From: a virus | Reading direction: 5' to 3' (one strand) | IMG/VR virus record: IMGVR_UViG_3300043436_003696 | Span: 1-64,000 of that record | Length of the DNA stretch: 64,000 nucleotides | Shown here: piece after piece, positions 3,632-55,220 of the stretch | Layout of the letters: every line of letters begins with the position of its first letter | Numbering within the stretch: position 1 is the first letter of the stretch | The notes under the pieces: model-generated | Seen by the model: only the letters and a program-made list of their open reading frames with translations | Told to the model about the DNA's origin: nothing | Databases searched by the model: none | Program-made: the position numbers and the translations under genes

Positions 3632-4181
3632 TTTTAACACACCTGATTTTATAAAAAATTATTTAATTAGTAATAATCAAAAAGTTACTACAACTAAATT
3701 ATTTAAACTAGGTAAAATATTAAACGATTTAAATGATTTAATGTTAGATGAAATAATATTAAATAATTACCCACTACGAGTGGGTAATGCTGTTTATATT
3801 AAACTAGTTAGAAAAGAAAGAAATTTTGATAAATTAGTTCCTAACTGGGGAGAAAGTAATAAATTAAAAAAACAGATTATTGAGCGTGGAGAAAAACCAG
3901 CTTCTAAAATTGGTACATCTCCTAATGGAAATCCTATTTTTGACGATGGTAAAAAATGGATGGTGTTTTTTATAGATGACTTTTATTTAACAATACAAAA
4001 AATATATACTTACGAAAAAATAAGTGAAACTAAATATAAAAAACTAGTACCAAATTCTATTTTTTGGAAATTTGATGTATCTAGTGAAGCATTTGGTAGA
4101 CTTACTAACTACGTTAATACAAATAAAATTAATAAATTAACTGTACCTTTATATGAGCGAAACAAAAACTATATCTTGTAA
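3615..4181 (+). CDS. Probable ring/adaptor structural protein
   Basis: The 188-aa product overlaps its upstream neighbour by 17 nt and its downstream neighbour by 29 nt. It has a helical N-terminus (residues 1-50) followed by a mixed alpha/beta domain with a KWMVFFIDDFYLTIQ strand. No membrane segment or enzyme motif is visible. It lies within the crAss-type neck gene order (ring-type proteins, then the large hub protein), so a virion neck component is the best inference. Confidence 0.45.
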   Translation: MPKTINFNTPDFIKNYLISNNQKVTTTKLFKLGKILNDLNDLMLDEIILNNYPLRVGNAVYIKLVRKERNFDKLVPNWGESNKLKKQIIERGEKPASKIGTSPNGNPIFDDGKKWMVFFIDDFYLTIQKIYTYEKISETKYKKLVPNSIFWKFDVSSEAFGRLTNYVNTNKINKLTVPLYERNKNYIL

Positions 4182-21100: not shown

Positions 21101-24100
21101 CGGTCTTAAAGCAACTGTTAATTATGAAAAAACTTTAAATAAAGTTGCTAATATTGTTGCTGATAGCATTAATTATTCTGATATGCTATCTAAATTAAAA
21201 ACCAGTAATGATTTAGCTTTACATCAATTAGCTGATAAATTAGGTGAAATAACTAAAGACAGTTCTGAAACTCAAATTAATTTAATTAAAGATTTTTACG
21301 CTCAATTTTTTAAAAACAAAAATACTTTTTATAAAGGTATATATAACGAAGAAGAAAATACTATAGGATTAAGTAATGCTAATACAACAACAGTACAAGA
21401 TAAAATACGTGTAAATTGGTTAAATAAATTAAAACATATTAAAGCTAATAAAATTATTAAAACTGTTAATAGTAAAATAATTTTAATTGATACTATTGAA
21501 AGAAATACTCCAATTTTAGCAAAAGAGTTTTTAGAAGATTTAGGGTTAGATACTTTTTCATTAACAGTTGAATATATGTCAACTAATCCTGAAGTTATGA
21601 CTGATATTTACAGTTTTATACAAGCTGTAAAATCTTTACCTAACAAAGATATTACATCTATTTTAGATAGAAAAAAATCTGATTTAAAAGGTAGGGTAGA
21701 AAAAGTATTAAATATATTAGCTAATGTTGAAGGTGATATAATAGAAACTAAATCTAGTACAGCTAAAGGAGCTACTGTTTATGGGTTAACTAATAGTTCT
21801 AATTATACTAGAACTATTGATAAAATAAATGCTTATGAATTGCCTGATTATTTAACTAACGACCCTTATAGTAAAGATTCACTTATTATACAAATGATGA
21901 TGAATCCTAACAAAGGAGAAAATTACTTTATTGAAAAAATTATTAATAGTGGTTTAGCAAAAGCTAATAAACTAGAAGGAGAAGATACATCTAAATTAAG
22001 TTATAGTGATTTAGTTGCTTATGATTTTGCAAATAATCTTGAAGGTATTCAAAGTTTATTACCTACAGGAGATAAAAAAACAAGTAGAGCTTTTGCTATT
22101 AAAAAAAGAGTTGGTAATTCTGTAACAAATGTTTCATTAGTTGACTTACAAAAAGGTCAAAAAAGCTATGAAAATATTTTAGATGAATTGACTACTAAAT
22201 TATTTAATTACTATAAAACAGAATCTAAATTAAAACCTAGAAAAGAAAATATATTACCTAAAGGTGAAAATCAACTAGGTAAAAAAACTTTATTTGATGG
22301 TATATTTGAACAATTTCCTTCTATTAACAAAGAAAAATCTATTAAACAATTTTTAGAATTTGTTATAAATGAAAATAAAGAATTGTTTAAAAAAACAAAT
22401 GTGTTAACAAAAAACAATACTGTTTTAACTCCAAATTTACTTAATAAATTATTAGGTAAAAATAGTGTTAATAATGAAAACGATGTAAATTTATTAACTG
22501 CTGCTTTTACAGGTAATTATATTTTATCTGCTATTGAACAAACAAAATTATTTTTTGGGCATCCTTTATTCTATAAAGATTTTATAGAGTTATTTAAACG
22601 ATTTGCAGGAGAAGTAGCTGAAACTAATGCTATATTAAACGACCAAGAACTACTAGATTGGTATGATAATAATCCTAAATACACTAGAAAAGATGGTAAA
22701 AAAAGAGATGGTAAATTTACTACTTTAGTAGTAGATGATATTGAAGTTTATAATAAAGAATTAGCTGGTTTAAATTCTGCGTATGCTGAAACAAATGAAG
22801 CTGATGCTTATGGAATTATTTTTGATGATTTTTTTAGAGATGTTCATTTATTATCAAATAAATGGTCAGAAGATTTTAATGAACAATGGTTAAAAGAATA
22901 TGAAGGTGAACAAGGTAATTTACAAATACCTGCTGCTTCTAAATTATTAGTTTTTGGTTCTCAAGAAGAAAATTTATTAAGACCGTTCAATTTAAAATTT
23001 GCTACATTTAGAGTAGGAAAATCTTTGATGGAAGTTATTAAAGAACAAAAAGGACAATACCCTCAATTAAATTCTTTATTAGAAAAAGTTAATAATCTAG
23101 CTAAAGAAGGTAATTATGTTGATATGGTTGTTTTTAAATCTGGTAATAAAGTAGGAACTAAAGTAAATTCTAATGGAACTATACATCCTTTTTATTCTGA
23201 AGATGGTAAAATATCTGATATTAATACAGAGTATCTTTCTACATTATCTTTATCTGATATAGGTATTCAAGTAGAAAACAATGCTAAAGAAGATTTAAAA
23301 ACAACAAGAGGTACTCAAGCTGCTGCTGTTGAATATTCAAATCTTTTTGAAAATGGTACTGCTATTGACCAAAAAGTAACTGTTAATAATAAAGAAATGT
23401 CTGTAAAAGATGCTGTTGAAGAATCTTTTAAAACACAAAACGATTTAACAGAAGCTTTAAAAGAACAGCTTAAAATTGAATTAGATATGGTTAATTCAAC
23501 AAAAGGTTATATATTTAAAGACAGTGGTAAAAAATTGTTAAAAATATTAACAGAAGAACAATTAAAAAGAGATAGTAGTGATAATGATATTGAAGGTGTT
23601 ATTGCAGAAATTAAAGGGTTACAAAATAACAATTCTATTATGTTAGAAAAACTTGTAAACAAAGTTAAACTAGAATACATATTATCTTCTATTGTTACAA
23701 ATAAAGTTATTAATCAAAGTAGATTTGGATTACAAGCTGTACAATTTCCTTCTACAGGTTTTGAATTTTCACCTAGAACTAAAAATAAAAATGGTAAATG
23801 GGAAACATCTGATTCATTAAGTTTTTACACAAACAATTTAGGTAAAAGTGTTATGCAAGTATATTTACCTTATTACTTTAAAGGTAAAATTAAAGGTAAT
23901 TCTATTGAACAATATAATGAAAAACTAAAACAAATGTATGGGTTTCGTATTCCTACTGAACAATTAAACTCAATTGAAGTAATTGAAGTAGTAGGATTTT
24001 TACCAAAATCTTATGGTAATACAGTAATTGTTCCAACAGGTATTACTACTAAAGTAGGTTCTGATTTTGACTTTGATAAAATTAATATGTATTTTCCTAA

Positions 24101-26303
24101 TTTTACTTATGATGAAAATAATAACCCTGTATATGTAGAATACAATGAAGAAAACTTAAATAATCCTAAGTTAAAAATAAAAGCATTAGAAAATAGATTA
24201 TTAGAATTATCTATAGGGTTAACTTCAGCTAATTTTAGAAAAAAAGAACATTTAAGTCCTAATAGTATAGCAGACGTATATAATGGTAAAGATAAACCGT
24301 CTATTGTAACTACTATACGAGAAGCTAAAATGAAAGTTAATCCTGATTTATTAAAAGATGATTATAATAATTTTAAATTAAGTGATTTATTTAGATTTAA
24401 AATAGTTTCTGAATTACGTAATAAGTTTTGGTATGGTAAAGACCTTATTGGTATTTTTGCTTTACACAATAAAAATCATATTATTGCTCAAATAGCTGGT
24501 TTAAAAATAAAATCTAAAACAAGTATTAATTTTGAGAATATTCAAAATGAATTGATTAATGAAGATTTTGTACACCCATTAGGTAATATGTTAGATACTA
24601 AAGGAAATTATATATCTTCTACAACAGGTCAAAGTGTTACATTAGCTGCGGATATTGCAAAAAATCCTGATATATTACCAGTACTTAATTTAAATGATAT
24701 AACTGCTGATGCAGCATTATTTTTAATAAGAAGAGGAGTACCAAAAGATACTGTATTTTATTTTATATCTCAACCTATTATTAAACAATATGTTGCAGAA
24801 ATAGCAGATTCAAAAGGCTGGTTAACAGAAAGTAATAATAGTAAAACAACTATAGTTAAAAATTTATTGTCGAAATATCCTATAACAGAAGATACAATTA
24901 ACTTTAATGACAAAATGTTATTATCTTTTGATAATAAGTATCAAAGACAAATATTAGAAGATTTTATTAATTATCAAACTTTAGGTAGTGAATTATCTGA
25001 ATTTCAAAGAGCTGTTTCATTTGATAGACTAGATTATAAAACTCAAGACGAACTTGATTATGCTTTATTTGGTTATGAAAAAGCTATGAAAAATGATAAT
25101 ATTGTGAATAAAGAACAATATATAAATACTTTTATTAAAGGTTTTTATAATGCTACTTTAGATACAAAAAATTTCTGGGATAATTTGTTTTTGTCAAGAC
25201 AATTACCTATATTTAAAGAGTTGAAAAATTTAAAAGAAGTTATTTACAATAAAATAAGTAAAAAGAATGATAGAAATAAAACATTAAATCTTATAACTAA
25301 TGATTTATTATCTTACATTTTAACAAATACTAATTCAAGTTTATTTAATTTTTCTATAAATGATTCTTACGATAGTTTAATAAAAGGCGAAAATTCTGTA
25401 GCTAAACAATTAGAAGCATTTAAAGAAGCTAATCCACAATATTCTGCTTTAAATAATCTTGTTGCTGATTTAAATCATAAAGATACTGGAATAGACAACA
25501 TTAAACTTTTTTCTAAAAAATTAACTTCTTATGAAATAGATGAAATAGTAGAAACTTTAAGAGATGTAGCTAAAATTAAAACTGATAATTTTAATGGTAA
25601 TCAATTTGTTTTAGATTTAATTAAAGTAGGATTTTTACAAACAGGTTTTAACTTATCTGGGTTTAATTATAACAATGTATTACCTAGTATAACTAAAAAT
25701 AATGAAGTATCGTTTTCTAGTGTTATTAATTCTGTTGTAAATAAATTAAATGTAAATGATATAAATATTAACGAATTTATTGAATTAGTACATTTAAATA
25801 ATATAAGCAATAATAATTTAGTACCTTACTATAAAAAAAGTAAACCTAAGTTTGAAAATGGTAATTTAGTAATAGATTCAAATACTAGTTATGTAGAATC
25901 TCTTTATGTAAAAAGAAAAGAAAAAGATACTTGGGTTATTTACAGAAAAGATAGTATTAATCAAGAAGGTAATGTTTTGTATAAACCTCTTTTACATAGA
26001 AATAAAGAAGGTAATGCAAAAGATTTTAGACCTTTAAAAGTAAAACTAGATTCAAAAGAATCTATTAATAATAGCAAAAATTTTGCGCCTACTATTGCAG
26101 AATTAGTTAATACTTATAATAAAATGTCTTCTACTAGAAAAACAGAATTTGCTAATAGTACTGGAATTAAAAACTCACAACAATTTGAAAGTAATGTAAC
26201 TGAAATTGTAAATAAACTTTCTGAAAATGAAAATTTAACAACAAAAGATATTGATACAATAATTAGAGATACAATTAATAAATGTTTTAAAGGAAAAGTA
26301 TAA
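15126..26303 (+). CDS. Giant virion protein with zincin motif and crAss-type RNA polymerase (DFDFD)
   Basis: The product is 3725 aa. Visible parts in order are: hydrophobic Ala/Gly stretches near residues 79-99, 155-175 and 417-430; a long charged coiled coil, about 825-1130; a zincin metalloprotease signature HEAFH at 1726-1730 (EGTEYHEAFHRVSQ); and GSDFDFDKINMYF with Asp 2980, 2982 and 2984. The triple-Asp motif in this context matches the catalytic loop of the crAss-like phage RNA polymerase (DFDID in phage phi14:2 gp66), a single-chain double-psi-barrel enzyme related to cellular and RNAi polymerases. Known relatives are packaged in the virion and transcribe early genes after ejection. 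Hydrophobic segments could aid membrane passage. Whether the chain is cleaved into parts cannot be seen. Confidence 0.85.
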   Translation: MPENPIKPDASYVDAVKQENKSKLSNYIESSKSKGSLDKYKPYFNEGQIYLNEGLDDARANNQGSLERGTRILTRGLATFGAATAETIAGIASLAASPFTYDKERGFVDSTFNNSLMKGIEELHKDVLENQQLYFTQEQLNDESITGWLSSSQFLDDLTQGAAFLASQAIPTSLVSKLVKSATFLTKIGKTGKVLNEAGVASKFFEGKTIKALQNLSKEELSAMAAEGIDIGQLQKTIGNTQRILDKVGTGVGATVGRLGESAMERNQTYNELINQGVDEQTAIKQSNNVFWGNIALAALDANQYTQMFGAFSKGAKKGLVNEMYDDATKLLFKKGDNLAAKQMSKADKIGNYLWGVAKQTGLESYEELQQHSFQEAAKQLALKANNPEYTDSIFDFLGKSFEGLPQSLATKEGLRSAILGGLLGGGTTAITTAKQQGQIQKTANEMATDFNNNSVYQKEKVDPTKRFITSPTGEKIANNNYLSELNRFTALEEAKIIAADKKDFIEWDRLNNLQLFGQVESHKKAGMLDELVSKYEALSDLKPVELATELKTNINQIQDPKLTVDNINNKIKHYSELLDSISSDPTLSALTTKAQRIAAVKLFNYEENKHQLNKITAKINELQAKNDSYTINTRFDSETDSNNLGNKTKGFEKLEGLNPTEQIEFKELNSRKEKLAKENESVLSWFTNVRKPENLYKFNEGINDFSENNDEEIVDNAVKKETSKVNSPEVMDFYNRNIVEDEDGFESSDIEVTDELGNKHTWTFQKDKPEVLFNEEGKVIYKTQDFLDNSYKDENGNYAINDSQNRKYVVTTVNPLDKRTIRKNKQELLKLEARVFSLDVIIKNLRKKLDNYKKQKQNEIELKNKELASILEDINSVKDGRTKRSNAYKTLLEKRDQLENEILELETELETYIQNRPNIVKRGMELREESNKLKSRIQEINSNLKKEFKSIEKEKLENNVKDLEQQIQLEEEFSQVYEDLINDKREYLINLKKVVNAINHFLSGELDKLIDKYPSVINTIISKYDIKTSEEFFNWVKNYKDKITDIYEITYLNTSPEFKNLLQEALTSIEDSELDKYTNEISDLEKELALIENEYTKYLETKTDNLNKLKFLLENAQQELKLYTNIYDKLINKEPSKPLTTQEFVETSNDLTAPKNGKKIDINRNGKFVTAGNDGWEENELNPNIEERRWYRFLENEAFKLKGLKLMTVTINDKVYGVSKPDSIYKDEKIKDVTHTIDDIRFIVVDANNTPVKFAGGIVTGRMRTDSDTFTNGEMRYYNSDLSITEQEFLNQLENESKKLNEVREKIKLNDTNFYFPVTFVNRGTNLNAAPSNVVGTLVNNSKEVDELTIEISTGKTQKGSFLINYPVGRVLIKQNETIIPAITRKINKNTEGRTVLELTKLLAKNILAGNPEQKPKNFKYSIQAYINNIVYTGISSTNNFSILDNNTILVGDKNITFEELLSGNYDNDILELLGNKTFQVNNNKWLNDTKKEYHQIAFVEGEFKNFTYESYKHFLLTSENSPLTVAIKSFLPNATDEQILNDPDFRRFQNGYIMYSPVFNNSETSPIVTKQEGVGELAGELAQLRNKKIEVENKKSIKNTTLNNLINNLPKEVKTDSNVKPSSEKEITLTPRDEKINSALEKLIGKKLPVENKSNLDKLGLNRLSNKSGVLIDINKAKENLSKILNVSVEIINGKLIDGIADGQLTSDGRILLSSLAEEGTEYHEAFHRVSQFLLTPSQKEELYNEYRKTNKANLTDLQVEEKLAENFRLHALGINPAQSKSKTFFDKVIDFIKNLFLLEQSNSNLINNLFNSIMLGEFKNKEALVNFMDYSRLNSSNTDKARIFNAYFSEILDNQPELYGILSDDSFDSDILIKEIYKQAAAKFADAAFQIDIFDEKNTLTNAQADAIKTYIQAHKKYIKNVGVLVSDNVDNIFNENENNLEEEQDPESSDIGKRDSEDYREGFESSSVSNVFKSVKLLIAGLTVEINYGLKATVNYEKTLNKVANIVADSINYSDMLSKLKTSNDLALHQLADKLGEITKDSSETQINLIKDFYAQFFKNKNTFYKGIYNEEENTIGLSNANTTTVQDKIRVNWLNKLKHIKANKIIKTVNSKIILIDTIERNTPILAKEFLEDLGLDTFSLTVEYMSTNPEVMTDIYSFIQAVKSLPNKDITSILDRKKSDLKGRVEKVLNILANVEGDIIETKSSTAKGATVYGLTNSSNYTRTIDKINAYELPDYLTNDPYSKDSLIIQMMMNPNKGENYFIEKIINSGLAKANKLEGEDTSKLSYSDLVAYDFANNLEGIQSLLPTGDKKTSRAFAIKKRVGNSVTNVSLVDLQKGQKSYENILDELTTKLFNYYKTESKLKPRKENILPKGENQLGKKTLFDGIFEQFPSINKEKSIKQFLEFVINENKELFKKTNVLTKNNTVLTPNLLNKLLGKNSVNNENDVNLLTAAFTGNYILSAIEQTKLFFGHPLFYKDFIELFKRFAGEVAETNAILNDQELLDWYDNNPKYTRKDGKKRDGKFTTLVVDDIEVYNKELAGLNSAYAETNEADAYGIIFDDFFRDVHLLSNKWSEDFNEQWLKEYEGEQGNLQIPAASKLLVFGSQEENLLRPFNLKFATFRVGKSLMEVIKEQKGQYPQLNSLLEKVNNLAKEGNYVDMVVFKSGNKVGTKVNSNGTIHPFYSEDGKISDINTEYLSTLSLSDIGIQVENNAKEDLKTTRGTQAAAVEYSNLFENGTAIDQKVTVNNKEMSVKDAVEESFKTQNDLTEALKEQLKIELDMVNSTKGYIFKDSGKKLLKILTEEQLKRDSSDNDIEGVIAEIKGLQNNNSIMLEKLVNKVKLEYILSSIVTNKVINQSRFGLQAVQFPSTGFEFSPRTKNKNGKWETSDSLSFYTNNLGKSVMQVYLPYYFKGKIKGNSIEQYNEKLKQMYGFRIPTEQLNSIEVIEVVGFLPKSYGNTVIVPTGITTKVGSDFDFDKINMYFPNFTYDENNNPVYVEYNEENLNNPKLKIKALENRLLELSIGLTSANFRKKEHLSPNSIADVYNGKDKPSIVTTIREAKMKVNPDLLKDDYNNFKLSDLFRFKIVSELRNKFWYGKDLIGIFALHNKNHIIAQIAGLKIKSKTSINFENIQNELINEDFVHPLGNMLDTKGNYISSTTGQSVTLAADIAKNPDILPVLNLNDITADAALFLIRRGVPKDTVFYFISQPIIKQYVAEIADSKGWLTESNNSKTTIVKNLLSKYPITEDTINFNDKMLLSFDNKYQRQILEDFINYQTLGSELSEFQRAVSFDRLDYKTQDELDYALFGYEKAMKNDNIVNKEQYINTFIKGFYNATLDTKNFWDNLFLSRQLPIFKELKNLKEVIYNKISKKNDRNKTLNLITNDLLSYILTNTNSSLFNFSINDSYDSLIKGENSVAKQLEAFKEANPQYSALNNLVADLNHKDTGIDNIKLFSKKLTSYEIDEIVETLRDVAKIKTDNFNGNQFVLDLIKVGFLQTGFNLSGFNYNNVLPSITKNNEVSFSSVINSVVNKLNVNDININEFIELVHLNNISNNNLVPYYKKSKPKFENGNLVIDSNTSYVESLYVKRKEKDTWVIYRKDSINQEGNVLYKPLLHRNKEGNAKDFRPLKVKLDSKESINNSKNFAPTIAELVNTYNKMSSTRKTEFANSTGIKNSQQFESNVTEIVNKLSENENLTTKDIDTIIRDTINKCFKGKV

Positions 26304-29300
26304 TGGCTACATGTATAAACAGAAATCACCCTAATTTTAAACAAATTAGTGAAGCTAATAATAATAATGATATATTAGCTAATATTTTAATTGATAATTG
26401 GCAACAACGTAATAATACGGATATTATACCAACTTTAGAAGAATTAAAAGGTAAATCTTTTAGTGTTATTAAACCAGGTGTAGAAGAATTATTTGATTCT
26501 AACCCTGAATTACCATCTCAAGTATATGAAGCTTTAGGGTTTGAAAATTTAACAAGAGACCAATTTAATAATATTACGAATATGAATTCTGATATTAATA
26601 ATGGTTGGAAGTTACATTTATCTATAAAAGGAGTAGAAGAATATGAATCAACTGAAGACAGTACACCATCTAAAGAAATTGAAAAAAGAGCTACTAAAAC
26701 AATTTCTATTTTAAATACTTTAAAAAATAGAAATTTAATACAAGATTATAAAATAGGAAATGATGGAGGGCAGCCAGGTAAAAACATTACAGTCTATATC
26801 GGAAATTCAAAAACTATAGATGAAGTTGTTAAAATATTATCAACAGATGAATTAAGAGAGTCTAACATAGAAGGAAATTTAAGTTTAGCTAAAGGTATTT
26901 CTGCAAGATTTGATTCTCATAGAAACGATTTAAAAGTAGATTCTGAAAAATATAAACTATTTAGATATGGTGTAAATGGAATACCAAATATAAGATATGG
27001 CTCTAGTGGAGTTAATCAATATTCAAATGAAGAAATTCCTTATAGTTTAGAATTGTTACAAGCATCATTAGGTAGTTATTTTAATAGTTCGTCTATTATA
27101 AATAATAAACTTAATAAGCTATATCCTAATACTGTACAGATTAGCAGTCAAATAACCCCACAACAAAAACAACAAGCTTTACAACAATATTCTCAATACT
27201 TAGATACTATATTTCCTGATAGTAAAGTAAAAGATATTGTTTATCATGGTACAGAAGATAAATTTGACAAATTTGATATAAAGTATTTTGGAAAAAATGA
27301 TTTCGGAGATTTAGGTAAAGGTTTTTATTTTGCTTTTGATAAAGCTAGTATATTTAATGAACCTATTGTTGTATCTGCTATTGTTAATGATACTAACAGT
27401 AAACAAAGTCCTGGATATGAGATAATGATTCCCAATGCAGAACAAATTCATATACTAGGAAATAAACAAGATATAGAAGGGTTTAAAGAGTTTGTAGGCA
27501 AAAAAAATAATTTAGAATCTTTTCAAAAAGATAAAGAAGGCAAAGTAATTAAAGTAGAAAGTAGTGACGAATTAATTGATTGGTTAAAACAAAATAATAT
27601 AATTACAAAACAAACTGAAAAAGGTGATTGGTTATTAAAAGTTTCTATTGATGCAACACCTACAGGTATTCAAACTAATAAAAACTTAGATAAATTAAAA
27701 AGTATTAAAGGTAAAAATATAATAAGAATTAATAAAACCAATGAAAAATTTAAAGAAACTTTTAAAACTAATTTAAATATAATTGAACCTAATTTATTAA
27801 ATAGTGGTATAGTTAAATTTAATAAAGAAGCTTTAACTTTATTAAATAGCCCCACTATAAATTTTCAATTATCTTCTAAAGATACTGAAAATTTTATACC
27901 TGATGAACAATTAGATTCTCGTATTAGAGAATTTTGTACTAAACTTGGTATTAAAGTAAATATTGATTCTGTTTTAGATGCAGAAGGTAATCCTATACCA
28001 GACGTTGTAGCCAGAGCTAAATTTGTTAGAGAAAACTTATCTGCTATTATTGATATTGCTCAAAATAAACAAGGTTATGACACGTTAACAGAAGAAGCTG
28101 TACATTTTTTAGTATGGATGATGCGAGGAACTCCTTTATATAATTCTATGATTAATGATGTAATAAAAACAGATACTTATAAACAAGTTAAAAAAGAATA
28201 TGCAAATGTATATTCTTCTGAAATACAGTTTAAAGAAGAAGCTATTACTAAATTAATAACTGAATCTGTTATTCAACAACACCAAAAAGGAACTAAACTT
28301 ACTTTTGATGAATATACCAATATTAATAATAGAATAAATCGTTGGTTTAATAAAGTAATGTCGTTTATAAAAGATTTATTAGCTAAATATTCTGTTAATG
28401 AATATGATGTAGCTGCTATGAAACTTTTATTTAATGATACATCTGATTTATCTTTAAATAATATAAATAACAATGAAGAAATGTATCAATTAGAAACTAA
28501 TGATATATCTTCTAAAATTAATGATGCGATTAATAAAATTAAAAGTAGACATATTAAAAGAGATTCTAACCATAAGTATAGTGAAGATGGTTTTGAGTAT
28601 TCAAAAAGTGTTACTGAATATATTCAAAGAAATAAACAATTTCCTGATAGAAGCCCTTCTGAAAAAGAACAAGACGAATTTGCTAGAAAAATAGGAGATT
28701 TAGGTCACGCTGATTTTAATAACTCATTAAAAAGAGCAATTGAATTAAAAGAAATTGGTAGTTATAAAACAGCAATAGAAATATACACTAATCCCTCTAT
28801 TAGAAGTAAAATTGATACTTTAGTAGATGATATAGTTTCTTCTTATGGAGAAAATGCTAGATTCTTAACTGAACAAATGATTGGTGATAAAAGTAAAGAT
28901 ATTGCAGGAGCATTTGACTTTTTAGTAGTTTATGAAAAAAATAATCAGGTAGAAGCAGAAATTTTAGATTTTAAATTTACTCAATTTAAAAAAGAAAAAA
29001 GTAAAGTAATTGCTGATGAAATACCTGCTTATAAAAAGAAAGATTATCAAGAACAGTTAAAAACATATAAAAATATTTTACAAAATGCTTATGGGTTAAA
29101 ATTTAATATTAATGCGTCATTAATACCTATTGGATTAAACACTATTAAAAAAGACAATAATTGGTTTTTAACTGGTGTTGAAATAGGTTCTACTAAATTT
29201 AATGAAGAAAAAAAATATTTAAATCCTATACCTTTAGAAACAAATAAAACAGGTAATGATTCTGTAGATTCTATAGTAGCTGGTTTAGTGGCACAAAAAA

Positions 29301-32239
29301 ATATAATTACAAAACAAGAACCTGAAACAGAAGAAGAAAAAAATAAAAAAATTATACGTCTTAAATCAATTAATGCAACTATTAAAAAAATTATTCTTAC
29401 AAAAGATTTAGAAGAATTTTTTAACGAAGCTAAATTTGAATTAGATAATATTTTATCTGGTAATATAACACCTGAAAAATTAGAAGCTGCTGGAGAAATT
29501 TTACCTTTTTATAAAAACTTAAACTTTAGTGATTATATTAGTTCTTTTTCAGAAGATAAAGAATTACAAAAAACAGCTGTAAATAATTTAGGTAATTTTT
29601 TAATTAAAATACAAAAAATAGAAAAAATTTATAACGAAAATTTAGATAAAATAGCTGATAGTATTGGAGAAAAACTTGGAGTTGATGGTATAAATATACC
29701 ACAAAAAGATATTGGGTGGTGGTCTAAAATACTTAGTTACTTTTCAAGTAGCCAAAATCCGCATATACAAAGTTTATATAAATTATGGATTTCTGCAAAA
29801 GATACTGCAAGATTAGCTTTTGAAAAAGATTTAACAGAAATTGAAAAACTTCATAAAGATGTTTTAGAGTATGCTTCTAAAAACGGTATTGAATCTAAAA
29901 ATGCTTATAAATTCATGCTTAAAAGAGATAAATTTAATAATCTTATTTTAATTGATAAATTTAGTAAAGAAGCTAGAAAAAAAATAAATAAAGCTAGAGA
30001 AGAAAAAAATTACTCTTATCTAAAAAAAGTTTTAGAATTTGATGAAAAGAAATACCTTGAAAAATATGAACAAGATAAAGCTTTTTATGAAAAACGATAT
30101 GAAGGGGATAATAAAAAAATAAAACAAATGTTAGAGTTAACTAAAAAACAATTTGATGTTAGAAAATCTGAATATGCTTTATTAAATAAAAATAATCGCT
30201 TTGTAAAACTAAATGAAAAAGAAGTAGAAAAATCTAGTGAGTATGAACACATACAAAAAACACCTGAATTAAAAGCTTTTTACGATTATTTTGTAGATAA
30301 AGTTTCTAATACTAGAAAAGAATTAGGTTTAGAATATGATTATAAGTTTGTACCACAAATAGGTAAGTCTATTATAGAAGCTATAACAGATGACGATACT
30401 AAATTTAGTTTTGGAGATAATTTTTGGAATAGTGTTTCTACTAATAAAAATGGTAGTTATGGTGAAGTAAATGTTTTAACAGGTAATGTTGAATACCAAA
30501 TATCTATGCCTTATCAAACTAAAATTGGTGAAAATTCTTCAGCAGATTTAGGTAAAGTTTTAGCATTATGGAGTAAAGCTGCACATGATACTAACCAACT
30601 TAAAAAAATAGAAACTAGTAGTAAAATATTATTACAACACCTTGAAAAACAAGAATTTTATTTAACAGATTTTTTTGGTGACCCCAAAACTAAAAAAGAT
30701 TCACAAGATTTAGCATTAGTCAATGCTGAAAATAGTAACACTCTATCTGCATATATTAGTTATATGCAAGAAGCTATTTACGGTGTACAAAACGCTAATG
30801 GTATGGCATTACCTAAAACAAGAAAAAGAGCTAAACGTGATTCAGAAGGTAATGTTGTAAAAGATGAAAATGGTAATATTGTAATGGAAGAATATGAATT
30901 ACCTGTTAGTGTAGATAAGTTAGTACAAAAAGTATTATCTTATATATCTGGTAATGCTTTAGGTTTTAATGTAATTTCAGCAGGAGCTAACTTAGGTGGA
31001 GGATTAGCTAACGGTTATTATATAGCACATCAAGATAAATTTTACAATAAAAAACAATTTACTAACGCAATTAGATTATTTAGTGCTGGTAGTATGAATC
31101 TTCAGACAAAAGCTTTATTAAGGTACTTTGATATTACAGGTAATATGGAAGGTTTTAATAAAGCAAATGCATTATCAGTAAGTGCTGCTGACAGATTTTT
31201 AACTTATGATAAGTTATATACACTACAGAAAAAAGGAGATGATTTAATACATAACACAATTTTATTATCATTACTTCAATCTCATGGTATTTCAGAAAAT
31301 GGTAAAATAAAACTTTTGTCTAAATTACCAGAAGGTACTAAATCTTTACTAGAATCTACTGAAATTAAAGAAGATGAAATTTATATTAAAGGATTAACTG
31401 ATAATAAAGATAAAACAGAATATTTAAATTTTAGACGTAAAGCACATGAACTATCTAAAAAAATAGTAGGTGTTAGTCCTGACCATGATATTAGATTAGC
31501 TAATCAAACTATTATGGGTAGAATATTAATGCAGTTTAGAAATTGGTTGCCTAGAATGGCTGAAGAAAGATTTATGATTGGTACTAGATTTAATAAAAAT
31601 TTAGATGATTTTGAAAAAGGTAGATACATTAGTTTTGTACAGTTTCTTAATAAAAATATAACTGATGGTATGCTACAAATAACAAAATCATATATTGGTA
31701 TAGGTGGTAATTTTGATGAAGTACTTTCTAAAAAATGGGAATTATTAAATCAAGAAACTAAAAACAAATATTTAAATAATACAGCAAATGAAGCAGAAGC
31801 AAAAGCGTCTTTCATATCTACTGAAAAAGCTAATTTAAAAGCAACAGTTTTAGAATTACAACTCATGTCTTTATTATTTGCTGCATTAATGCTATTAAAT
31901 GGTGGGGATGATGATGATGATAAATCACCAGTTAAAAAAATGCTTATAGCTATGACAGATAGATTACATAGTGAACTTTCTTTTTTTGTTTTACCACCAT
32001 CATTTTTAACAATTATAAAATCTCCTGTAGCTGCAAGTAGTACACTTAATGATAGTTATAACATAGTTGAAGATATTATAGGTCAAACAGTAGGTTTTAT
32101 TACAAATGATGAAGATAGAATGGATAAAAATAAACCTTTAAAAAGAACAGGTAAAATGTTTCCGCTTTTAAAAGAAGGTATAAAAGATTTTGACATTATG
32201 TTTGATGACAGTTATCTTGATAATATTAAAAGTTGGTAA
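26303..32239 (+). CDS. Giant polyvalent virion protein: ART-like and PD-(D/E)XK nuclease-like segments
   Basis: The product is 1978 aa and its start overlaps the RNA polymerase gene (TAATG). Around residues 310-350, DIVYHGTEDKFDKFD followed by GDLGKGFYFAFDKASI fits the ADP-ribosyltransferase-like domain of phage polyvalent proteins (Y-H-G-T strand, then G-x-G-x-Y/F-F). Around 590-600, LTEEAVHFLVWMM recalls a degenerate metalloprotease helix. Around 868-922, IAGAFDFLVVY (Asp ~872), EILDFKFT (D-x-K ~887-889) and QLKTY form the D...DxK...QxxxY set of a RecB/Cas4-like PD-(D/E)XK nuclease. Near 1850 a hydrophobic helix precedes NGGDDDDDK. Being last in the cargo operon, it is probably ejected into the host. 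Confidence 0.75.
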   Translation: MATCINRNHPNFKQISEANNNNDILANILIDNWQQRNNTDIIPTLEELKGKSFSVIKPGVEELFDSNPELPSQVYEALGFENLTRDQFNNITNMNSDINNGWKLHLSIKGVEEYESTEDSTPSKEIEKRATKTISILNTLKNRNLIQDYKIGNDGGQPGKNITVYIGNSKTIDEVVKILSTDELRESNIEGNLSLAKGISARFDSHRNDLKVDSEKYKLFRYGVNGIPNIRYGSSGVNQYSNEEIPYSLELLQASLGSYFNSSSIINNKLNKLYPNTVQISSQITPQQKQQALQQYSQYLDTIFPDSKVKDIVYHGTEDKFDKFDIKYFGKNDFGDLGKGFYFAFDKASIFNEPIVVSAIVNDTNSKQSPGYEIMIPNAEQIHILGNKQDIEGFKEFVGKKNNLESFQKDKEGKVIKVESSDELIDWLKQNNIITKQTEKGDWLLKVSIDATPTGIQTNKNLDKLKSIKGKNIIRINKTNEKFKETFKTNLNIIEPNLLNSGIVKFNKEALTLLNSPTINFQLSSKDTENFIPDEQLDSRIREFCTKLGIKVNIDSVLDAEGNPIPDVVARAKFVRENLSAIIDIAQNKQGYDTLTEEAVHFLVWMMRGTPLYNSMINDVIKTDTYKQVKKEYANVYSSEIQFKEEAITKLITESVIQQHQKGTKLTFDEYTNINNRINRWFNKVMSFIKDLLAKYSVNEYDVAAMKLLFNDTSDLSLNNINNNEEMYQLETNDISSKINDAINKIKSRHIKRDSNHKYSEDGFEYSKSVTEYIQRNKQFPDRSPSEKEQDEFARKIGDLGHADFNNSLKRAIELKEIGSYKTAIEIYTNPSIRSKIDTLVDDIVSSYGENARFLTEQMIGDKSKDIAGAFDFLVVYEKNNQVEAEILDFKFTQFKKEKSKVIADEIPAYKKKDYQEQLKTYKNILQNAYGLKFNINASLIPIGLNTIKKDNNWFLTGVEIGSTKFNEEKKYLNPIPLETNKTGNDSVDSIVAGLVAQKNIITKQEPETEEEKNKKIIRLKSINATIKKIILTKDLEEFFNEAKFELDNILSGNITPEKLEAAGEILPFYKNLNFSDYISSFSEDKELQKTAVNNLGNFLIKIQKIEKIYNENLDKIADSIGEKLGVDGINIPQKDIGWWSKILSYFSSSQNPHIQSLYKLWISAKDTARLAFEKDLTEIEKLHKDVLEYASKNGIESKNAYKFMLKRDKFNNLILIDKFSKEARKKINKAREEKNYSYLKKVLEFDEKKYLEKYEQDKAFYEKRYEGDNKKIKQMLELTKKQFDVRKSEYALLNKNNRFVKLNEKEVEKSSEYEHIQKTPELKAFYDYFVDKVSNTRKELGLEYDYKFVPQIGKSIIEAITDDDTKFSFGDNFWNSVSTNKNGSYGEVNVLTGNVEYQISMPYQTKIGENSSADLGKVLALWSKAAHDTNQLKKIETSSKILLQHLEKQEFYLTDFFGDPKTKKDSQDLALVNAENSNTLSAYISYMQEAIYGVQNANGMALPKTRKRAKRDSEGNVVKDENGNIVMEEYELPVSVDKLVQKVLSYISGNALGFNVISAGANLGGGLANGYYIAHQDKFYNKKQFTNAIRLFSAGSMNLQTKALLRYFDITGNMEGFNKANALSVSAADRFLTYDKLYTLQKKGDDLIHNTILLSLLQSHGISENGKIKLLSKLPEGTKSLLESTEIKEDEIYIKGLTDNKDKTEYLNFRRKAHELSKKIVGVSPDHDIRLANQTIMGRILMQFRNWLPRMAEERFMIGTRFNKNLDDFEKGRYISFVQFLNKNITDGMLQITKSYIGIGGNFDEVLSKKWELLNQETKNKYLNNTANEAEAKASFISTEKANLKATVLELQLMSLLFAALMLLNGGDDDDDKSPVKKMLIAMTDRLHSELSFFVLPPSFLTIIKSPVAASSTLNDSYNIVEDIIGQTVGFITNDEDRMDKNKPLKRTGKMFPLLKEGIKDFDIMFDDSYLDNIKSW

Positions 32240-32344: not shown

Positions 32345-32884
32345 CTATTTTAAAAAAGTATTAGTTGTTACTATTTCTAAGGTTTTTCGTTCTTCATCTA
32401 AATTTCTATTTAATGCAGCTTCTTCTGTAAACTTTTCTGGATAACGTACTTTTAATTTTTCTATGTTGTTGTATAAACATTTTTCAAAATTTAAATTATA
32501 ATATTCTGCTATACATTTCATAGTAAATATTATATCATTATGATTATTACGTTGTATATCAAAATATAAAAGATGTCTTAATATTTCATCAAAATCTTCT
32601 ATTTTATAATTAGCTATATATTTTTCTAATGTTACTTCGAGATTTAAAAAAGTAGCTTCATTACAAGCATACCAAGCTACATCTGCTAATTCTTCACCTA
32701 AATTTACTATATCAATAGATTTTTTATAAGCTAATTCTTTTTTAAATATATCTAATATTTCACCTATTTCTGTTAATACCCCTAATTTCATGTGTAATAA
32801 ATCTTTTTCTAAACTTCCTAAACTTACGCAAGTTCTTTTAGCTAATTGTTGGTATTCTTGTATTGTTAATGTATTATTGCTCAT
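32345..32884 (-). CDS. MazG-like nucleoside triphosphate pyrophosphohydrolase
   Basis: The 179-aa product carries the all-alpha NTP pyrophosphatase pattern: LTEIGEILDIFKKEL (residues ~36-50), then LGEELADVAWYACNEA (~62-77), giving the ExxE...ELxD metal-binding set. The C-terminal YPEKFTEEAALNRNLDEERKTLE also matches phage MazG-like enzymes. Family members hydrolyse NTPs or dNTPs to the monophosphate and may lower alarmone or non-canonical nucleotide levels. It is the last gene of the minus-strand block. An oligomeric state or substrate cannot be read from the sequence. Confidence 0.8.
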   Translation of the reverse strand: MSNNTLTIQEYQQLAKRTCVSLGSLEKDLLHMKLGVLTEIGEILDIFKKELAYKKSIDIVNLGEELADVAWYACNEATFLNLEVTLEKYIANYKIEDFDEILRHLLYFDIQRNNHNDIIFTMKCIAEYYNLNFEKCLYNNIEKLKVRYPEKFTEEAALNRNLDEERKTLEIVTTNTFLK

Positions 32885-42956: not shown

Positions 42957-44056
42957 CATTTTATTATCTCATAAGTTCTTTATCTTATGATTCTACAGTT
43001 TCGTTATGTTATATCTGTAGTTTAGACTATCTCATCTATTGATTCATTATCAATAGCCGATATTTCGTGGATGAGTTGTATGTCTTTACTATCATCTAGT
43101 CGTTGAACCTCTATACTACTATTTAGACTTTGTATAGTTGGTAACTGATTGTCCTCTTCAGGAGTTTCCAGTTTTAAATCGGTTTTTCGGGGGCAAGTAA
43201 AACTATATCTACTTTTATATAATTTTTTTTTCGATGTTAATATTTGACTTATTGAAGGGCTTGGTAAATTAAAATATATAGAACATTCTTTTATAGAATT
43301 AAATATTAATTTTTCATTTGTTATTAAATCTGTAACTTCTACTATTTTATTTAATTTAGAAACGTCTTTAGGTTTATAAACAATTTTTGATATTATTTTT
43401 TCAGTATCATTACTTAATTTAAACTGATAACCTTTGTTTTGTTTATGTGTACCTAATAAAACCCTATCTATGCCAGACCTTGAAATATTAAGATTCTTAG
43501 AAGCTTCTTCTATAGATTTATAACTAATTATATAATTACCATCTTTATCATATACATCTACAGCTTTATTAACAGGATTTTCATAACCTAATTCATAATT
43601 TTTCTTTAATTTTTTAGAAATAGATTTTTTTATATCTTCTGTTATAATTTTATTTAATTCTCCTTCTCCTCTATCATCAGCGTTAGTTAAATTGTATTTA
43701 CCTTTATATTTATTTATTAAATTTCTTTCAAAAATATGTGATTCTTTCCAACCATCAACAGTTGTTAACAATTTTATTTTTGGTTCTTTTCCTTCTTTTA
43801 ATAAAGATTTTATCCAATTTACTTTATGACTGTATTTTTTATTAGGATAATATTTTTCAAAATATTTAGCTTTAGTTATATGTTCTATTAATCTATATTC
43901 TAATATTTCTTTTTTAGTTCTTCCTATGTAACGTATTTTACACTCATTGTAATCGTAAAGACAATATATTTTAATTTTTTCCATAAAACAAATATACAAA
44001 ATATATATTGATTATTCAGCGCAGAAATAATAAATTTTTAAATTTATTAATATTTT
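42957..44056 (-). ncRNA. Group I intron in the replicative helicase gene
   Basis: This 1100-nt insertion splits the Walker A loop inside codon 49: exon 1 ends ACGGGGGT (T 44057) and exon 2 begins TGGTAAAACT after intron-terminal G 42957, giving TGVGKT. The core is clear: GGTTCAACGACTAGA (R element, 43095-43109), GAGATAGTCTAAAC (S element, around 43021-43036), and GACAATCAG (Q-like) upstream of R. The 3' tail after the ORF contains a CTACAG...CTGTAG hairpin. The GIY-YIG ORF overlaps the R and part of the S region. Confidence 0.9.
43022..43984 (-). CDS. GIY-YIG homing endonuclease in the helicase intron
   Basis: The start is ATG 43984 (MEKIKIYCLYDYNE, 320 aa); the longer frame begins at a TTG. 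The N-terminal nuclease domain has YCLY (residues 7-10), KIRYIGRT (16-23) and ESHIFERNLINKYKGKYNLTN, the GIY-YIG fold pattern with catalytic Arg and Glu. Then come a NUMOD-like DNA-binding stretch (AVDVYDKDGNYIISYKSIEEASKNLNISRSGI) and a second similar repeat (LIFNSIKECSIYFNLPSPSISQIL). The last 40 codons overlap the ribozyme core. Confidence 0.9.
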   Translation of the reverse strand: MEKIKIYCLYDYNECKIRYIGRTKKEILEYRLIEHITKAKYFEKYYPNKKYSHKVNWIKSLLKEGKEPKIKLLTTVDGWKESHIFERNLINKYKGKYNLTNADDRGEGELNKIITEDIKKSISKKLKKNYELGYENPVNKAVDVYDKDGNYIISYKSIEEASKNLNISRSGIDRVLLGTHKQNKGYQFKLSNDTEKIISKIVYKPKDVSKLNKIVEVTDLITNEKLIFNSIKECSIYFNLPSPSISQILTSKKKLYKSRYSFTCPRKTDLKLETPEEDNQLPTIQSLNSSIEVQRLDDSKDIQLIHEISAIDNESIDEIV

Positions 44057-48510: not shown

Positions 48511-51165
48511 TTATTCTTCTCCTTCTGATGTGTTAAATTGTTGTAATTCTAATTCTTGGTTTTCTTCTAAATCTTCTTCATAAGTAATATCATCACTTTC
48601 AGGAGTAGATTCTTCACTAGTTAAAAAAGCATCTGCTTGTTTTTGCTGTTCATAAGCTTTTCTATTAGCTTCTTCTTGTTCTTTTGTCATAAATTGTTTA
48701 TTTAAATATTTAAAAGAATTTTTTATTACGTCTTCTGGGTCTATTAATCCAAAACTATTAATAAAAACATTTGATAATTCTTTTTGTTTTTGCTGTGGTA
48801 TATTTGAATTATTATAATGTATATAATTAAGTTTTTTACCCCTACTTTTTAAATAATCTATTATATATGGTAAAGAATCTTCATCCCAATTTAAGTGTTG
48901 TAGTATTTCACAACCATCAAAATAATTATTTACCCATTCAAAAACATCACAAATAGATTTATCTTCGTATTTAATAATACCAGATTTTGTTAAACTTAAT
49001 AATTCTTTAGCAAATTCTTTATTTTCATCTATTCTCCAATCTACTTTATCTGTATAAGATTCTAATTCTTTAACAGCTAAATAAATATTAAAATTAATTT
49101 TTTTCAATATATTTAAAGCTGTAGAATTACTAAATAAAGATTGATATTTTTTTCTTATTTGTATTGTTTGTATTAATCTACATACTATTTTATTATTACT
49201 TTGCATAAATAAATTTACATGTGCCGCATTAGGCATTTTATTAAATAAATATTCATTTGATTGACTTATTCTTATTATTTTAATAGCTTGTTCATTAAGA
49301 ACAGATTCAGAATAAATAAAAGATTTATTTAACTGAAGAAGTTTTGAAATAAATTCTAATTTTGTATTATCTTTTAAAAATCCATATATAAGAATACCTT
49401 TAAAATTTTTTAATGTATTTAAATGTAAATCACCTACATAAGAACTTGAAATATTTTTATAAGGTATAATACCATCTAATTTAAGTTTTGGTTGTCTATT
49501 TGCCTTAGCAATTGCTTTTTGTTTAGCTAACCATTCTTCAGGTATTTTAAAATCTTTATATTCAATTACTTCAAAATCTTTTTTTAATTCTTCAAAAATT
49601 ATATTTCTATATTCTAATAATTCTTTAATAATACCTACAGGTTTATTAAAAACAGTAGTTTTAACTTTTTTATAAGAAACAATTAAATTACCTTCCCCAT
49701 CTCTTTTTTTTACTGGAACTGTTTTATTAATTTCAATTTCATTAAATTTTATACCAACACTTTCTAACCAAGCATTATAATAATATTTAGATATTTTTTT
49801 ACGTTTTACAAATATACAATTATTAATATATTTTTTAAATTCCTTACTTTCTGGTATATTATCAGTTTCTTCTAATAAAACTATTTTAGTAATTACAGAA
49901 TCATAATTAATTAAATTTAAATCATTATTTTTAACTTCTTTACCATATACTATTTTTTTATTAAGCACGTTAAACGAATATAAAATATTTTCTATTTTAG
50001 CAGGATTAATTACTTTAAAATGTGTTATAGGTTTAAATAAAATAGATGTTAAATTATATAAACAAGTTGCATCTAAACTGTAATTAAAATTATCACTAAT
50101 AGGAAAAATTAAATATTTGTTTTTACCTTTAGAAAAATTTATTTTTTTTACATAATTAATTAAACCTTCTACAGGTAAATTTTGTTCATTATATCTTTTT
50201 ATTAAGTTTTTAACTACATCAGCTATTTTATTTTTTATTAATAATATAGTTTCATCTGAATAAAGAATAGATTCTCTAGTCATTGTTACTTGAATATCAC
50301 CAATATTAAACTTAATGCCTATAGGTATATTAATTTTTTCAACCCCTATAGTTTTCCAATCTATTGGATAACAAACTTTTCCTAAAACTAAATGTATTTC
50401 TTTAGAATATTGGTTAGTAGTACGTAATTTAAATAAATCAGATTCAACAATTTTACCTGAATTATATGATTGTTCTAATTTATATAATTTATAATCATCG
50501 TAATAACAGTAATTATCTTTAAATTCAAAAATAACATTATCAAAAAAAGATAATTCTTTAACAACTATACTAGCAATATAATTTATTTCTTTTACTTCAC
50601 TATAATTATTTATTTTATAATCTTCTTCTTTTAAATAAATTTTTACTGTAGTTCCATTAGTTAAATTAGTTTCTTCATTTTCAATTAATAATGTAACATC
50701 AGGCATACCTGAAGTTTTACGGTAAACATTAAATTGATTTAATAATCCATTTTTTACACTAGTAACAATAAAATTATTTTGATAAGATAAAGGTGACATT
50801 CTTCCTATACCAAAACCACCTATTTGTTCATTACTTTGGTCTTTTGTAGAATCTAAAATTTGAGTGTATCTTTTTGTAATAAACTCATAATCCATTCCAA
50901 TTCCTTTATCTATAATTTCAATATAATTTCCACCATCATCATCATCTAATTTAACAATAACTGGATTAGGATTATTAGCTTCTTTCATAGCATCCCAAGC
51001 ATTTGATACAGTTTCTCTAATAAATGAAGCTCTAGGATTATGATAACCGCCAATTAAAATATCAAATAATTTATCTGTTTTGTCTAATTTAATACTTGTT
51101 TTAAGAGTACTTTCATCATTAAAATTTGTATTAATTTCTGCTAAATTTTCTTCTTTTAATTTCAT
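48511..51165 (-). CDS. rIIA: rIIA-like GHKL ATPase
   Basis: The start is set at ATG 51165, which forms ATGA with the upstream stop; a longer frame from 51192 exists. The product is 884 aa. An N-terminal Hsp90/histidine-kinase-type ATPase is clear: RETVSNAWDAM (N box, residues 50-60), YIEIIDKGIGMD (G1, 81-92) and IGGFGIGRMSPL (G2, 115-126). The long C-terminal part is helical with a very acidic tail. This matches T4 rIIA-like proteins, membrane-associated factors that counter prophage exclusion. No rIIB partner is evident next to it. Confidence 0.8.
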   Translation of the reverse strand: MKLKEENLAEINTNFNDESTLKTSIKLDKTDKLFDILIGGYHNPRASFIRETVSNAWDAMKEANNPNPVIVKLDDDDGGNYIEIIDKGIGMDYEFITKRYTQILDSTKDQSNEQIGGFGIGRMSPLSYQNNFIVTSVKNGLLNQFNVYRKTSGMPDVTLLIENEETNLTNGTTVKIYLKEEDYKINNYSEVKEINYIASIVVKELSFFDNVIFEFKDNYCYYDDYKLYKLEQSYNSGKIVESDLFKLRTTNQYSKEIHLVLGKVCYPIDWKTIGVEKINIPIGIKFNIGDIQVTMTRESILYSDETILLIKNKIADVVKNLIKRYNEQNLPVEGLINYVKKINFSKGKNKYLIFPISDNFNYSLDATCLYNLTSILFKPITHFKVINPAKIENILYSFNVLNKKIVYGKEVKNNDLNLINYDSVITKIVLLEETDNIPESKEFKKYINNCIFVKRKKISKYYYNAWLESVGIKFNEIEINKTVPVKKRDGEGNLIVSYKKVKTTVFNKPVGIIKELLEYRNIIFEELKKDFEVIEYKDFKIPEEWLAKQKAIAKANRQPKLKLDGIIPYKNISSSYVGDLHLNTLKNFKGILIYGFLKDNTKLEFISKLLQLNKSFIYSESVLNEQAIKIIRISQSNEYLFNKMPNAAHVNLFMQSNNKIVCRLIQTIQIRKKYQSLFSNSTALNILKKINFNIYLAVKELESYTDKVDWRIDENKEFAKELLSLTKSGIIKYEDKSICDVFEWVNNYFDGCEILQHLNWDEDSLPYIIDYLKSRGKKLNYIHYNNSNIPQQKQKELSNVFINSFGLIDPEDVIKNSFKYLNKQFMTKEQEEANRKAYEQQKQADAFLTSEESTPESDDITYEEDLEENQELELQQFNTSEGEE

Positions 51166-51437
51166 AAATTTTTGTCTTCGTATAAATGCCAAACAAATAA
51201 ATCTTCTTTTTGTAATATTGTACCTATATAAATTAAATTACCTTTAAAAAACATATCACCTGTGCGTATAATACAAAATTTTCTTTTTACTTGTTTTATA
51301 ATTTCACTTGTTTCAAACTCATACCATATCATAGGTACTTCATTTTGAGTTTTAAAACATAAAATATTAGCATTTTTAGGTAAAGACAAAAAAAAATTAT
51401 CACTAATAGGTATTTCTTTTTTAAGTATTACATTCAT
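51162..51437 (-). CDS. Hypothetical 91-aa protein
   Basis: The 91-aa beta-rich product (FFLSLPKNANILCFKTQNEVPMIWYEFE..., then KRKFCIIRTGDMFF) overlaps its neighbours by 4 nt on each side. It is coupled to the rIIA-like gene. No family is recognised. Confidence 0.55.
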   Translation of the reverse strand: MNVILKKEIPISDNFFLSLPKNANILCFKTQNEVPMIWYEFETSEIIKQVKRKFCIIRTGDMFFKGNLIYIGTILQKEDLFVWHLYEDKNL

Positions 51438-54873: not shown

Positions 54874-55220
54874 TGGAGATGTGGGGAGTCGAACCCCAGT
54901 CCGAATAGTTGCTATAATACAACTTGATTACATGCTTAAATCTATTATTGCTAATTGATTAGTATTAGGCTGAACCGAAATTCAGCTCCACCAGTTAGTT
55001 TAAAGTTCTAACAAACTTTTGATTAAGCAGCTAAAGCTACTTTTTCAGTTTTAGCAAATAAAGCTACAATGTTATTTGTAGTTGTTTCAGCAAAATTCCT
55101 AGAATTTTCTGAAATTGTATTGTTGTTTGCGTTTGTTTTTGATACTAATTTAGATGTAATGTATCTACCATCGCATGATTGTATTAAGGCTTAACACTCT
55201 CGTCAATTCCCGTCATCCCC
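54874..55220 (-). ncRNA. ssrA: tmRNA (ssrA)
   Basis: This 347-nt gene has the tRNA-Ala-like ends of tmRNA: 5' GGGGATG pairs with 3' CATCTCC (7 bp) with a G-T at the third pair, the alanine identity element. The T arm is TGGGG-TTCGACT-CCCCA, directly next to the acceptor. The discriminator is A, and CCA is not encoded. Near the 5' end, GACGGG matches the conserved tmRNA 5' region. An internal tag frame starts GCAAACAAC at nucleotide 91, the same place as in E. coli tmRNA, and ends GCTTTAGCTGCTTAA. The RNA would rescue stalled ribosomes and tag products for proteolysis. Confidence 0.93.
55023..55130 (-). other. tmRNA tag-peptide frame (35 codons)
   Basis: From resume codon GCA (55130-55128) the frame reads ANNNTISENS... 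and ends ...TEKVALAA with TAA at 55025-55023. The end matches the usual ALAA degradation signal, but typical tags have about 8 to 15 residues. A later resume codon would shorten it, yet GCAAACAAC agrees with the classical GCAAACGAC start. Confidence 0.7.

What the first reader, a model, noticed from the sequence alone, without database searches (positions are those of the whole stretch)
54874..55220. Phage-encoded tmRNA with an unusually long, 35-codon tag
All tmRNA hallmarks are present (G3-U70 alanine acceptor, T arm, GACGGG, resume codon at nucleotide 91), but the tag frame runs 35 codons before ending VALAA. E. coli uses 10. The RNA is still only 347 nt, so room for pseudoknots 2-4 is reduced. 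The extra tag residues could retarget or speed degradation of products, or carry another signal, during infection.
Basis: partly seen in the sequence, partly recalled or inferred. Interest (0 to 1): 0.85.

Follow-up and report, generated by a model that had tools for sequence, protein, structure and literature searches.

The report
Phage tmRNA with 35-residue tag
A crAss-like phage carries its own ribosome-rescue RNA that appears to append a 35-residue tag instead of the usual 9-10, and at least 81 other distinct phage tags of 26-45 residues share a conserved protein motif, so phages seem to have rewritten this bacterial quality-control label for a still unknown purpose.

Summary
Window 54874-55220 (-) is a one-piece tmRNA (RF00023, 82.4 bits): G3-U70 acceptor, T arm, H2, pseudoknot 1 ending 10 nt before resume codon GCA at nt 91, then 35 open codons, ANNNTISENSRNFAETTTNNIVALFAKTEKVALAA*. 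ARAGORN instead reports AKTEKVALAA from nt 166, but nt 91 is the best match to 29 Bacteroidota resume contexts and relatives resume at nt 84-103. The record (90,098 bp) is a crAss-like phage without SmpB. Bacteroidota host tags are 9-10 aa.

The long tag is not a one-off. Cultured phages have them: F. psychrophilum FpV group (35 aa), Cellulophaga phi14:2 (38), phi38:1, phi40:1 and Calle (30), mostly unannotated. A pattern scan found at least 120 viral contigs with such tmRNAs; their 81 distinct tags (26-45 aa) all contain QxxANM, 77 end in AA, and the core is under protein-level selection (pN/pS 0.39 in frame; 0.81 and 1.21 shifted).

Limits: the window's own tag is not significantly similar to that family, no near relative covers its tmRNA, and the role of the extension is inferred. 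Best guess: a ClpXP-type C-terminal degron plus a second, helical recognition element.

The parts
54874..55220 (-). one-piece tmRNA gene, 347 nt without CCA
   Evidence: RF00023 82.4 bits; ARAGORN
55214..55220 (-). acceptor stem 5' strand GGGGAUG (G3 at 55218)
   Evidence: sequence
54875..54881 (-). acceptor stem 3' strand CAUCUCC (U70 at 54877)
   Evidence: sequence; discriminator A at 54874, CCA not encoded
54882..54898 (-). T arm UGGGG-UUCGACU-CCCCA
   Evidence: alignment
55173..55177 (-). helix 2 inner strand CAUGC, pairs with GCAUG at 54931-54935
   Evidence: alignment
55141..55172 (-). pseudoknot 1: GATG (55172-55169)/CATC (55156-55153) and GATAC (55165-55161)/GTATC (55145-55141)
   Evidence: sequence, position as in RF00023
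55128..55130 (-). resume codon GCA, nt 91
   Evidence: best-scoring site with 29-host matrix
55026..55130 (-). 35-codon tag ANNNTISENSRNFAETTTNNIVALFAKTEKVALAA
   Evidence: translation
55023..55025 (-). tag stop codon TAA
55085..55114 (-). hairpin A inside the tag frame
   Evidence: fold
55064..55081 (-). hairpin B inside the tag frame
   Evidence: fold
55053..55055 (-). rival resume codon GCU (nt 166) chosen by ARAGORN
55025..55042 (-). hairpin over the tag end (VALAA), reaching the stop codon
   Evidence: fold
54994..55019 (-). H-type pseudoknot after the tag: AAAGTT/AACTTT and GTTAG/CTAAC
   Evidence: sequence; drawn by eye, not tested by covariation

Best explanation
It is a working, phage-encoded, one-piece tmRNA that uses the host's SmpB, alanyl-tRNA synthetase and ribosomes. 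Charged with alanine, it enters stalled ribosomes during infection and restarts translation at GCA (nt 91), so stalled chains receive Ala plus a 35-residue tag instead of the host's 9-10 residues. The C-terminal VALAA keeps a ClpXP-type degron, so tagged chains are probably degraded. The extra ~25 residues are probably not accidental: in a large related phage family the extension is conserved as protein (QxxANMxxV core, variable linker, AA end), which fits two separately read elements, a C-terminal protease signal and an internal, probably helical element bound by an adaptor, unfoldase or other partner. Shown by computation: the RNA, its phage context, the frame, host tag lengths, selection on the family's tags. 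Inferred: charging, SmpB use, degradation, the partner, and that this tag works like the family's.
For: tmRNA. Resume at nt 91. Phage context. No phage SmpB, so host SmpB must serve. Host tags 9-10 aa. Long tags in cultured phages. Family of at least 120 contigs, 81 distinct tags, QxxANM in all. Protein-level selection: pN/pS 0.39 against 0.81 and 1.21, synonymous codons at invariant residues. Search by tag alone lands in tmRNAs in 63 of 64 loci. G3-U70 in 70 of 70. Core and end conserved with a variable linker.
Against: The window's own tag is not significantly like the family (p 0.56 on the profile with VALAA kept; ungapped p 0.07), and no homologue was found for a codon test. ARAGORN's nt 166 also has U-A at -5/-4, and in E. 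coli the PK1 distance is not critical (PMC2481249). The tag region folds unusually well as RNA (z -3.0). No transcript or tagged protein is known. AlphaFold2 helices for peptides this short are weak evidence.
Confidence: 0.72

Rival explanations
1. Short-tag tmRNA: translation resumes at GCU (nt 166) and adds the 10-residue AKTEKVALAA; the 75 nt after nt 91 are an inserted pair of RNA hairpins whose open frame is accidental.
For: ARAGORN picks it; U-A at -5/-4; a 10-aa tag is the commonest length (PMC11915505); stable hairpins in the insert.
Against: nt 166 scores 2.6 bits against 9.87 for nt 91; no relative examined resumes outside nt 84-103; an open frame in register by chance has p about 0.04; ARAGORN also mis-starts Calle and misses FpV21.
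Confidence: 0.1
2. Long but unselected: the RNA works and the 35-residue tag is made, but its extra residues are a neutral spacer in this phage; only VALAA matters.
For: No significant similarity of this tag to the conserved family; tag length varies widely among phages.
Against: Long tags are frequent and conserved as protein in related phage tmRNAs.
Confidence: 0.2
3. The insert acts as RNA: hairpins A and B replace lost pseudoknots or pace the ribosome, and the amino acids are incidental.
For: Tag region folds better than all 200 shuffles (z -3.0); fewer pseudoknots after the tag.
Against: In the relatives the codons, not just the bases, are conserved.
Confidence: 0.12
4. Decoy or decaying tmRNA that blocks the host system, like the tRNA-like-domain-only RNA of mycobacteriophage DS6A.
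For: The phage lacks SmpB; the DS6A precedent (PMC4131195).
Against: Complete tRNA-like and mRNA-like domains, resume signal, open frame and stop; relatives under coding selection.
Confidence: 0.05

Closest known systems
Bacterial one-piece tmRNA (ssrA, Rfam RF00023), Bacteroidota type
   Same: tRNA-like domain with G3-U70, H2, PK1, resume codon near nt 90-100, tag ending in LAA
   Different: Host tags 9-10 aa against 35 aa here; host RNAs read here are mostly 350-400 nt with a fuller set of downstream elements
tmRNAs of Flavobacterium phage FpV21 group, Cellulophaga phi14:2, phi38:1, phi40:1 and Calle
   Same: Phage-encoded, long tags of 35, 38 and 30 aa, no phage SmpB in those tested
   Different: They share a pseudoknot-1 sequence and the QxxANM tag core that the window's RNA lacks
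Mycoplasma tmRNA tags (about 26-27 aa; from memory, not tested here)
   Same: Tag much longer than 10 aa
   Different: Chromosomal bacterial genes, unrelated tag sequence, shorter than most tags described here
Permuted two-piece phage tmRNAs, e.g. methylophage Melnitz (PMC9004378) and S-CRM01
   Same: tmRNA carried by an aquatic phage
   Different: Circularly permuted gene; this one is standard one-piece
Mycobacteriophage DS6A tmRNA-like RNA (PMC4131195)
   Same: Phage-borne tmRNA derivative
   Different: DS6A has little more than the tRNA-like domain; this one has a full tag frame

Membership tests
tmRNA, standard one-piece form (RF00023) | covariance-model match above the gathering score | tested here: met
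   82.4 bits against 47, model 1-374
tmRNA, standard one-piece form (RF00023) | alanine identity pair G3-U70 in the acceptor stem | tested here: met
   GGGGAUG/CAUCUCC
tmRNA, standard one-piece form (RF00023) | pseudoknot 1 just upstream of a resume codon in a resume context | tested here: met
   10-nt spacing; best site of 29-host matrix
tmRNA, standard one-piece form (RF00023) | tag frame ending in a small hydrophobic degron and a stop | tested here: met
   VALAA-TAA
tmRNA, standard one-piece form (RF00023) | typical tag of about 10 aa | tested here: not met
   35 codons; typical, not defining: known tags reach from 2 aa upward (PMC11915505)
tmRNA, standard one-piece form (RF00023) | trans-translation with SmpB in cells | not testable with these tools
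   no experimental data; phage has no SmpB gene
QxxANM long-tag phage tmRNA family (defined here) | phage-encoded tmRNA with a tag of 26-45 aa | tested here: met
   35 aa
QxxANM long-tag phage tmRNA family (defined here) | QxxANMxxV core in the tag | tested here: not met
   no such core; profile score no better than shuffles. Not filed as a member
crAss-like phages (Crassvirales and relatives) | TerL, portal and major capsid proteins of crAss-like type, in that order | tested here: met
   PHROGs 6681, 6547, 11589; tblastn to crAss-like phages

The most novel reading that the evidence does not exclude
Phages of Bacteroidota, and independently other phage lineages, encode tmRNAs whose long tags are bipartite signals: a ClpXP-type C-terminus plus an internal recognition helix that routes stalled chains to a specific host or phage partner, so infection rewrites the fate of ribosome-rescued proteins.
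Probability: 0.35. Interest if true: 0.9.

Novelty: new variant of a known kind. Interest (0 to 1): 0.74.

Why it matters
tmRNA tags are usually treated as a short degradation label; the 2025 tmRNA database paper gives 10 aa as the most frequent length and highlights 2-aa tags (PMC11915505). A widespread class of phage tmRNAs with 26-45-residue tags, an invariant internal motif and coding selection would mean that the tag can carry a second signal and that phages exploit it. It can be tested now: Cellulophaga phage phi38:1 carries such a tmRNA, and raw mass-spectrometry data from infected cells are public (MSV000098485 / PXD066074; PMC13288928). It also shows that ARAGORN mis-starts or misses such genes.

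Tried and rejected
Near relatives of this locus: the 346-aa neighbour and RIIA gave no confirmed viral-contig relatives; a window-like tmRNA 3' pattern returned only loci already found; a degenerate pattern for this tag's end gave none; tblastn of the tag gave none. Contigs with TerL 100% or 58% identical to this phage are fragments without a tmRNA match. Homology of this tag to the QxxANM family was tempting (same length, 10 of 35 identical to FpV21 ungapped) but fails shuffles and is not claimed. A resemblance to cyanobacterial tags (ANNIV..., from memory) was noted and not pursued. PDB profile search of the tag family: no hit. The one weak match among 296 Bacteroidota genomes lies inside a long open protein frame (613 aa) with no tmRNA features seen, so chance. 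Programmed bypassing of the tag hairpins: considered, not tested; the frame is open throughout, so it is not needed. Promoter scan no better than shuffles. Phage ClpP: none found.

Full report
Check of the observation. The window's only Rfam match is RF00023 at 55220-54871 on the minus strand, 82.4 bits against a gathering score of 47; ARAGORN agrees on the gene. Reading the strand 5' to 3', acceptor GGGGAUG pairs with CAUCUCC with G3-U70, the T arm is UGGGG-UUCGACU-CCCCA, H2 is closed by CAUGC/GCAUG, and the encoded end is ACAA, so CCA must be added after transcription. Pseudoknot 1 (GATG/CATC and GATAC/GTATC) ends 10 nt before GCA at nt 91, and the frame from GCA runs 35 codons to TAA.

Which resume codon. 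ARAGORN starts the tag at GCU (nt 166), giving AKTEKVALAA. A matrix from 29 Bacteroidota tmRNAs ranks nt 91 first in nt 60-230 (9.87 bits), with nt 166 at 2.6. The matrix from the QxxANM phage family fits this RNA poorly (nt 91 scores 0.3 and is not its top site), but it puts nt 166 far lower (-8.2). Hosts resume at nt 90-103 and 70 phage relatives at nt 84-91. A random 25-codon extension, open and in the right frame, has probability about 0.04. ARAGORN also starts Calle's tag at codon 9 of the frame I read and finds no gene in FpV21, so its choice carries little weight. In E. coli the key determinant is A at -4, and the distance to PK1 is not critical (PMC2481249); both sites have that A, so the short-tag reading is unlikely but not excluded.

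The carrier. The record is a 90,098-bp virus record whose TerL, portal and major capsid proteins match PHROGs 6681, 6547 and 11589 in that order. Best hits are crAss-like phages and F. psychrophilum phages. It has no SmpB and no ClpP, so host factors are needed. Known crAss-like hosts are Bacteroidota (general knowledge); the exact host is unknown.

Hosts for comparison. Of 38 Bacteroidota tmRNA loci, ARAGORN read 36 with tags of 9-10 aa (GENNYALAA, ANDYSYAMAA and similar), one with an odd 14-aa call (L377), and missed one. The missed one, F. psychrophilum, reads GEGNYALAA by hand.

Relatives in cultured phages. FpV21 carries an unannotated tmRNA at KT876726 84348-84762 (58.2 bits) whose frame reads GNTNNSVVSLEDNAQVEANMNMAFSLIREDVAVAA, also 35 codons; the gene is at least 99% identical in all 29 F. 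psychrophilum phage records that match. phi14:2 has one at 4031-4499, 46.0 bits, just under the gathering score, reading GNDTDNTQLKANMTVVHNILNGSDALIGSSVQKLAMVA, 38 codons. Calle, phi38:1 and phi40:1 read GNNTNAVNAQIEANMEAVNAILNLEVAVGV, 30 codons (RF00023 87-88 bits for Calle and phi38:1). Of these only Calle's is annotated as a tmRNA (PMC8776804).

A large family. Read from the resume codon they give 81 complete distinct tags of 26-45 aa, median 35. The pattern did not select on the tag, yet every tag contains QxxANM, 80 of 81 have V three residues after M, and 77 of 81 end in AA. Invariant residues use different codons (GCT/GCA/GCC/GCG, AAC/AAT, GTA/GTT/GTG), and pN/pS around the core is 0.39 against 0.81 and 1.21 in shifted frames. 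A search by tag alone returned 64 loci, 63 of them in a tmRNA context. Seventy distinct genes with both ends found, 301-474 nt long, all have G3-U70 (my end-finding score gave that pair a small bonus). RF00023 finds the gene in 28 of 30 such records, 23 above its cut-off. TerL matches in 42 of these records range from crAss-like to much more distant or none, so the tmRNA seems to cross phage lineages. None of 33 tmRNA phages tested has SmpB. The tag is absent from 296 Bacteroidota genomes apart from one chance match.

Other phage groups. The first viral scan also contains unrelated long tags, for example DNTTVELSNYTFESLVAELEGSELELA, AKTTSERVAEGEAILASLFADVAIAA and AKSEFDFAPSVAEADAFLKAAGFVDAELLAA. 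In-frame synonymous change exceeds the shifted frames in groups C and D but not clearly in B; only two or three sequences each. Long tags may have arisen more than once in phages.

The window's own tag. Despite equal length and 10 of 35 identities with FpV21's tag, it does not score above shuffles on the family profile when its VALAA end is kept (p 0.56; ungapped p 0.07). I treat it as a long tag outside the demonstrated family. The insert forms two hairpins within the tag frame (z -3.0), so an RNA role is possible. AlphaFold2 draws both this tag and FpV21's as helices, which for 35-residue peptides is weak evidence.

How it most likely works. Charged with alanine through G3-U70 and delivered with host SmpB, the RNA moves stalled ribosomes to GCA and appends the long tag; the AA end should engage ClpXP (inference from known ssrA biology). 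In the family, 15-31 residues of mostly variable sequence lie between ANM and the C-terminus, so a conserved core and a conserved end sit at variable distance, as expected if two factors read them separately. What reads the core is unknown.

Novelty. Phage tmRNAs are known (79 of 97,179 database sequences, PMC11915505; PMC9004378; PMC8776804). In nine searches of the held open-access library I found no description of long phage tags. The tmRNA database itself could not be searched, so individual sequences may already be listed there.

Noticed in passing
L209:1501-1915 (KT876726 84348-84762) and L231:1462-1930 (NC_021806 4031-4499): Unannotated tmRNAs with 35- and 38-codon tags in the F. psychrophilum FpV phages and in Cellulophaga phage phi14:2; in phi14:2 and phi38:1 spurious small protein genes had been annotated over them.
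   Followed up: yes
L457:601-962 (NC_021796, phi38:1): Unannotated tmRNA (RF00023 87.6 bits) with a 30-residue tag that ends GV rather than AA; the same tag is in phi40:1 and Calle.
   Followed up: partly
L455:761-982 (Synechococcus phage S-CRM01, HQ615693): Unannotated permuted cyanobacterial-type tmRNA (RF04321 82.5 bits, RF01851 74.3 bits) next to two tRNAs.
   Followed up: no
L018, L020, L028, L055, L114; L026, L041, L075; L043, L086, L052; L104: Other viral contigs with unrelated long tmRNA tags (26-33 aa), each group with its own recurring sequence before the small hydrophobic end.
   Followed up: partly
window 43022-43999 (-): NUMOD1 / I-HmuI-like homing endonuclease between replication genes (Pfam); possible intron or inserted mobile gene.
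   Followed up: no
window 48511-51192 (-) and 32345-32884 (-): An RIIA-like protein with a HATPase domain (893 aa) and a MazG-like pyrophosphatase.
   Followed up: no
window 15126-26303 and 26303-32239 (+): Giant ORFs of 3725 and 1978 aa, not searched here.
   Followed up: no
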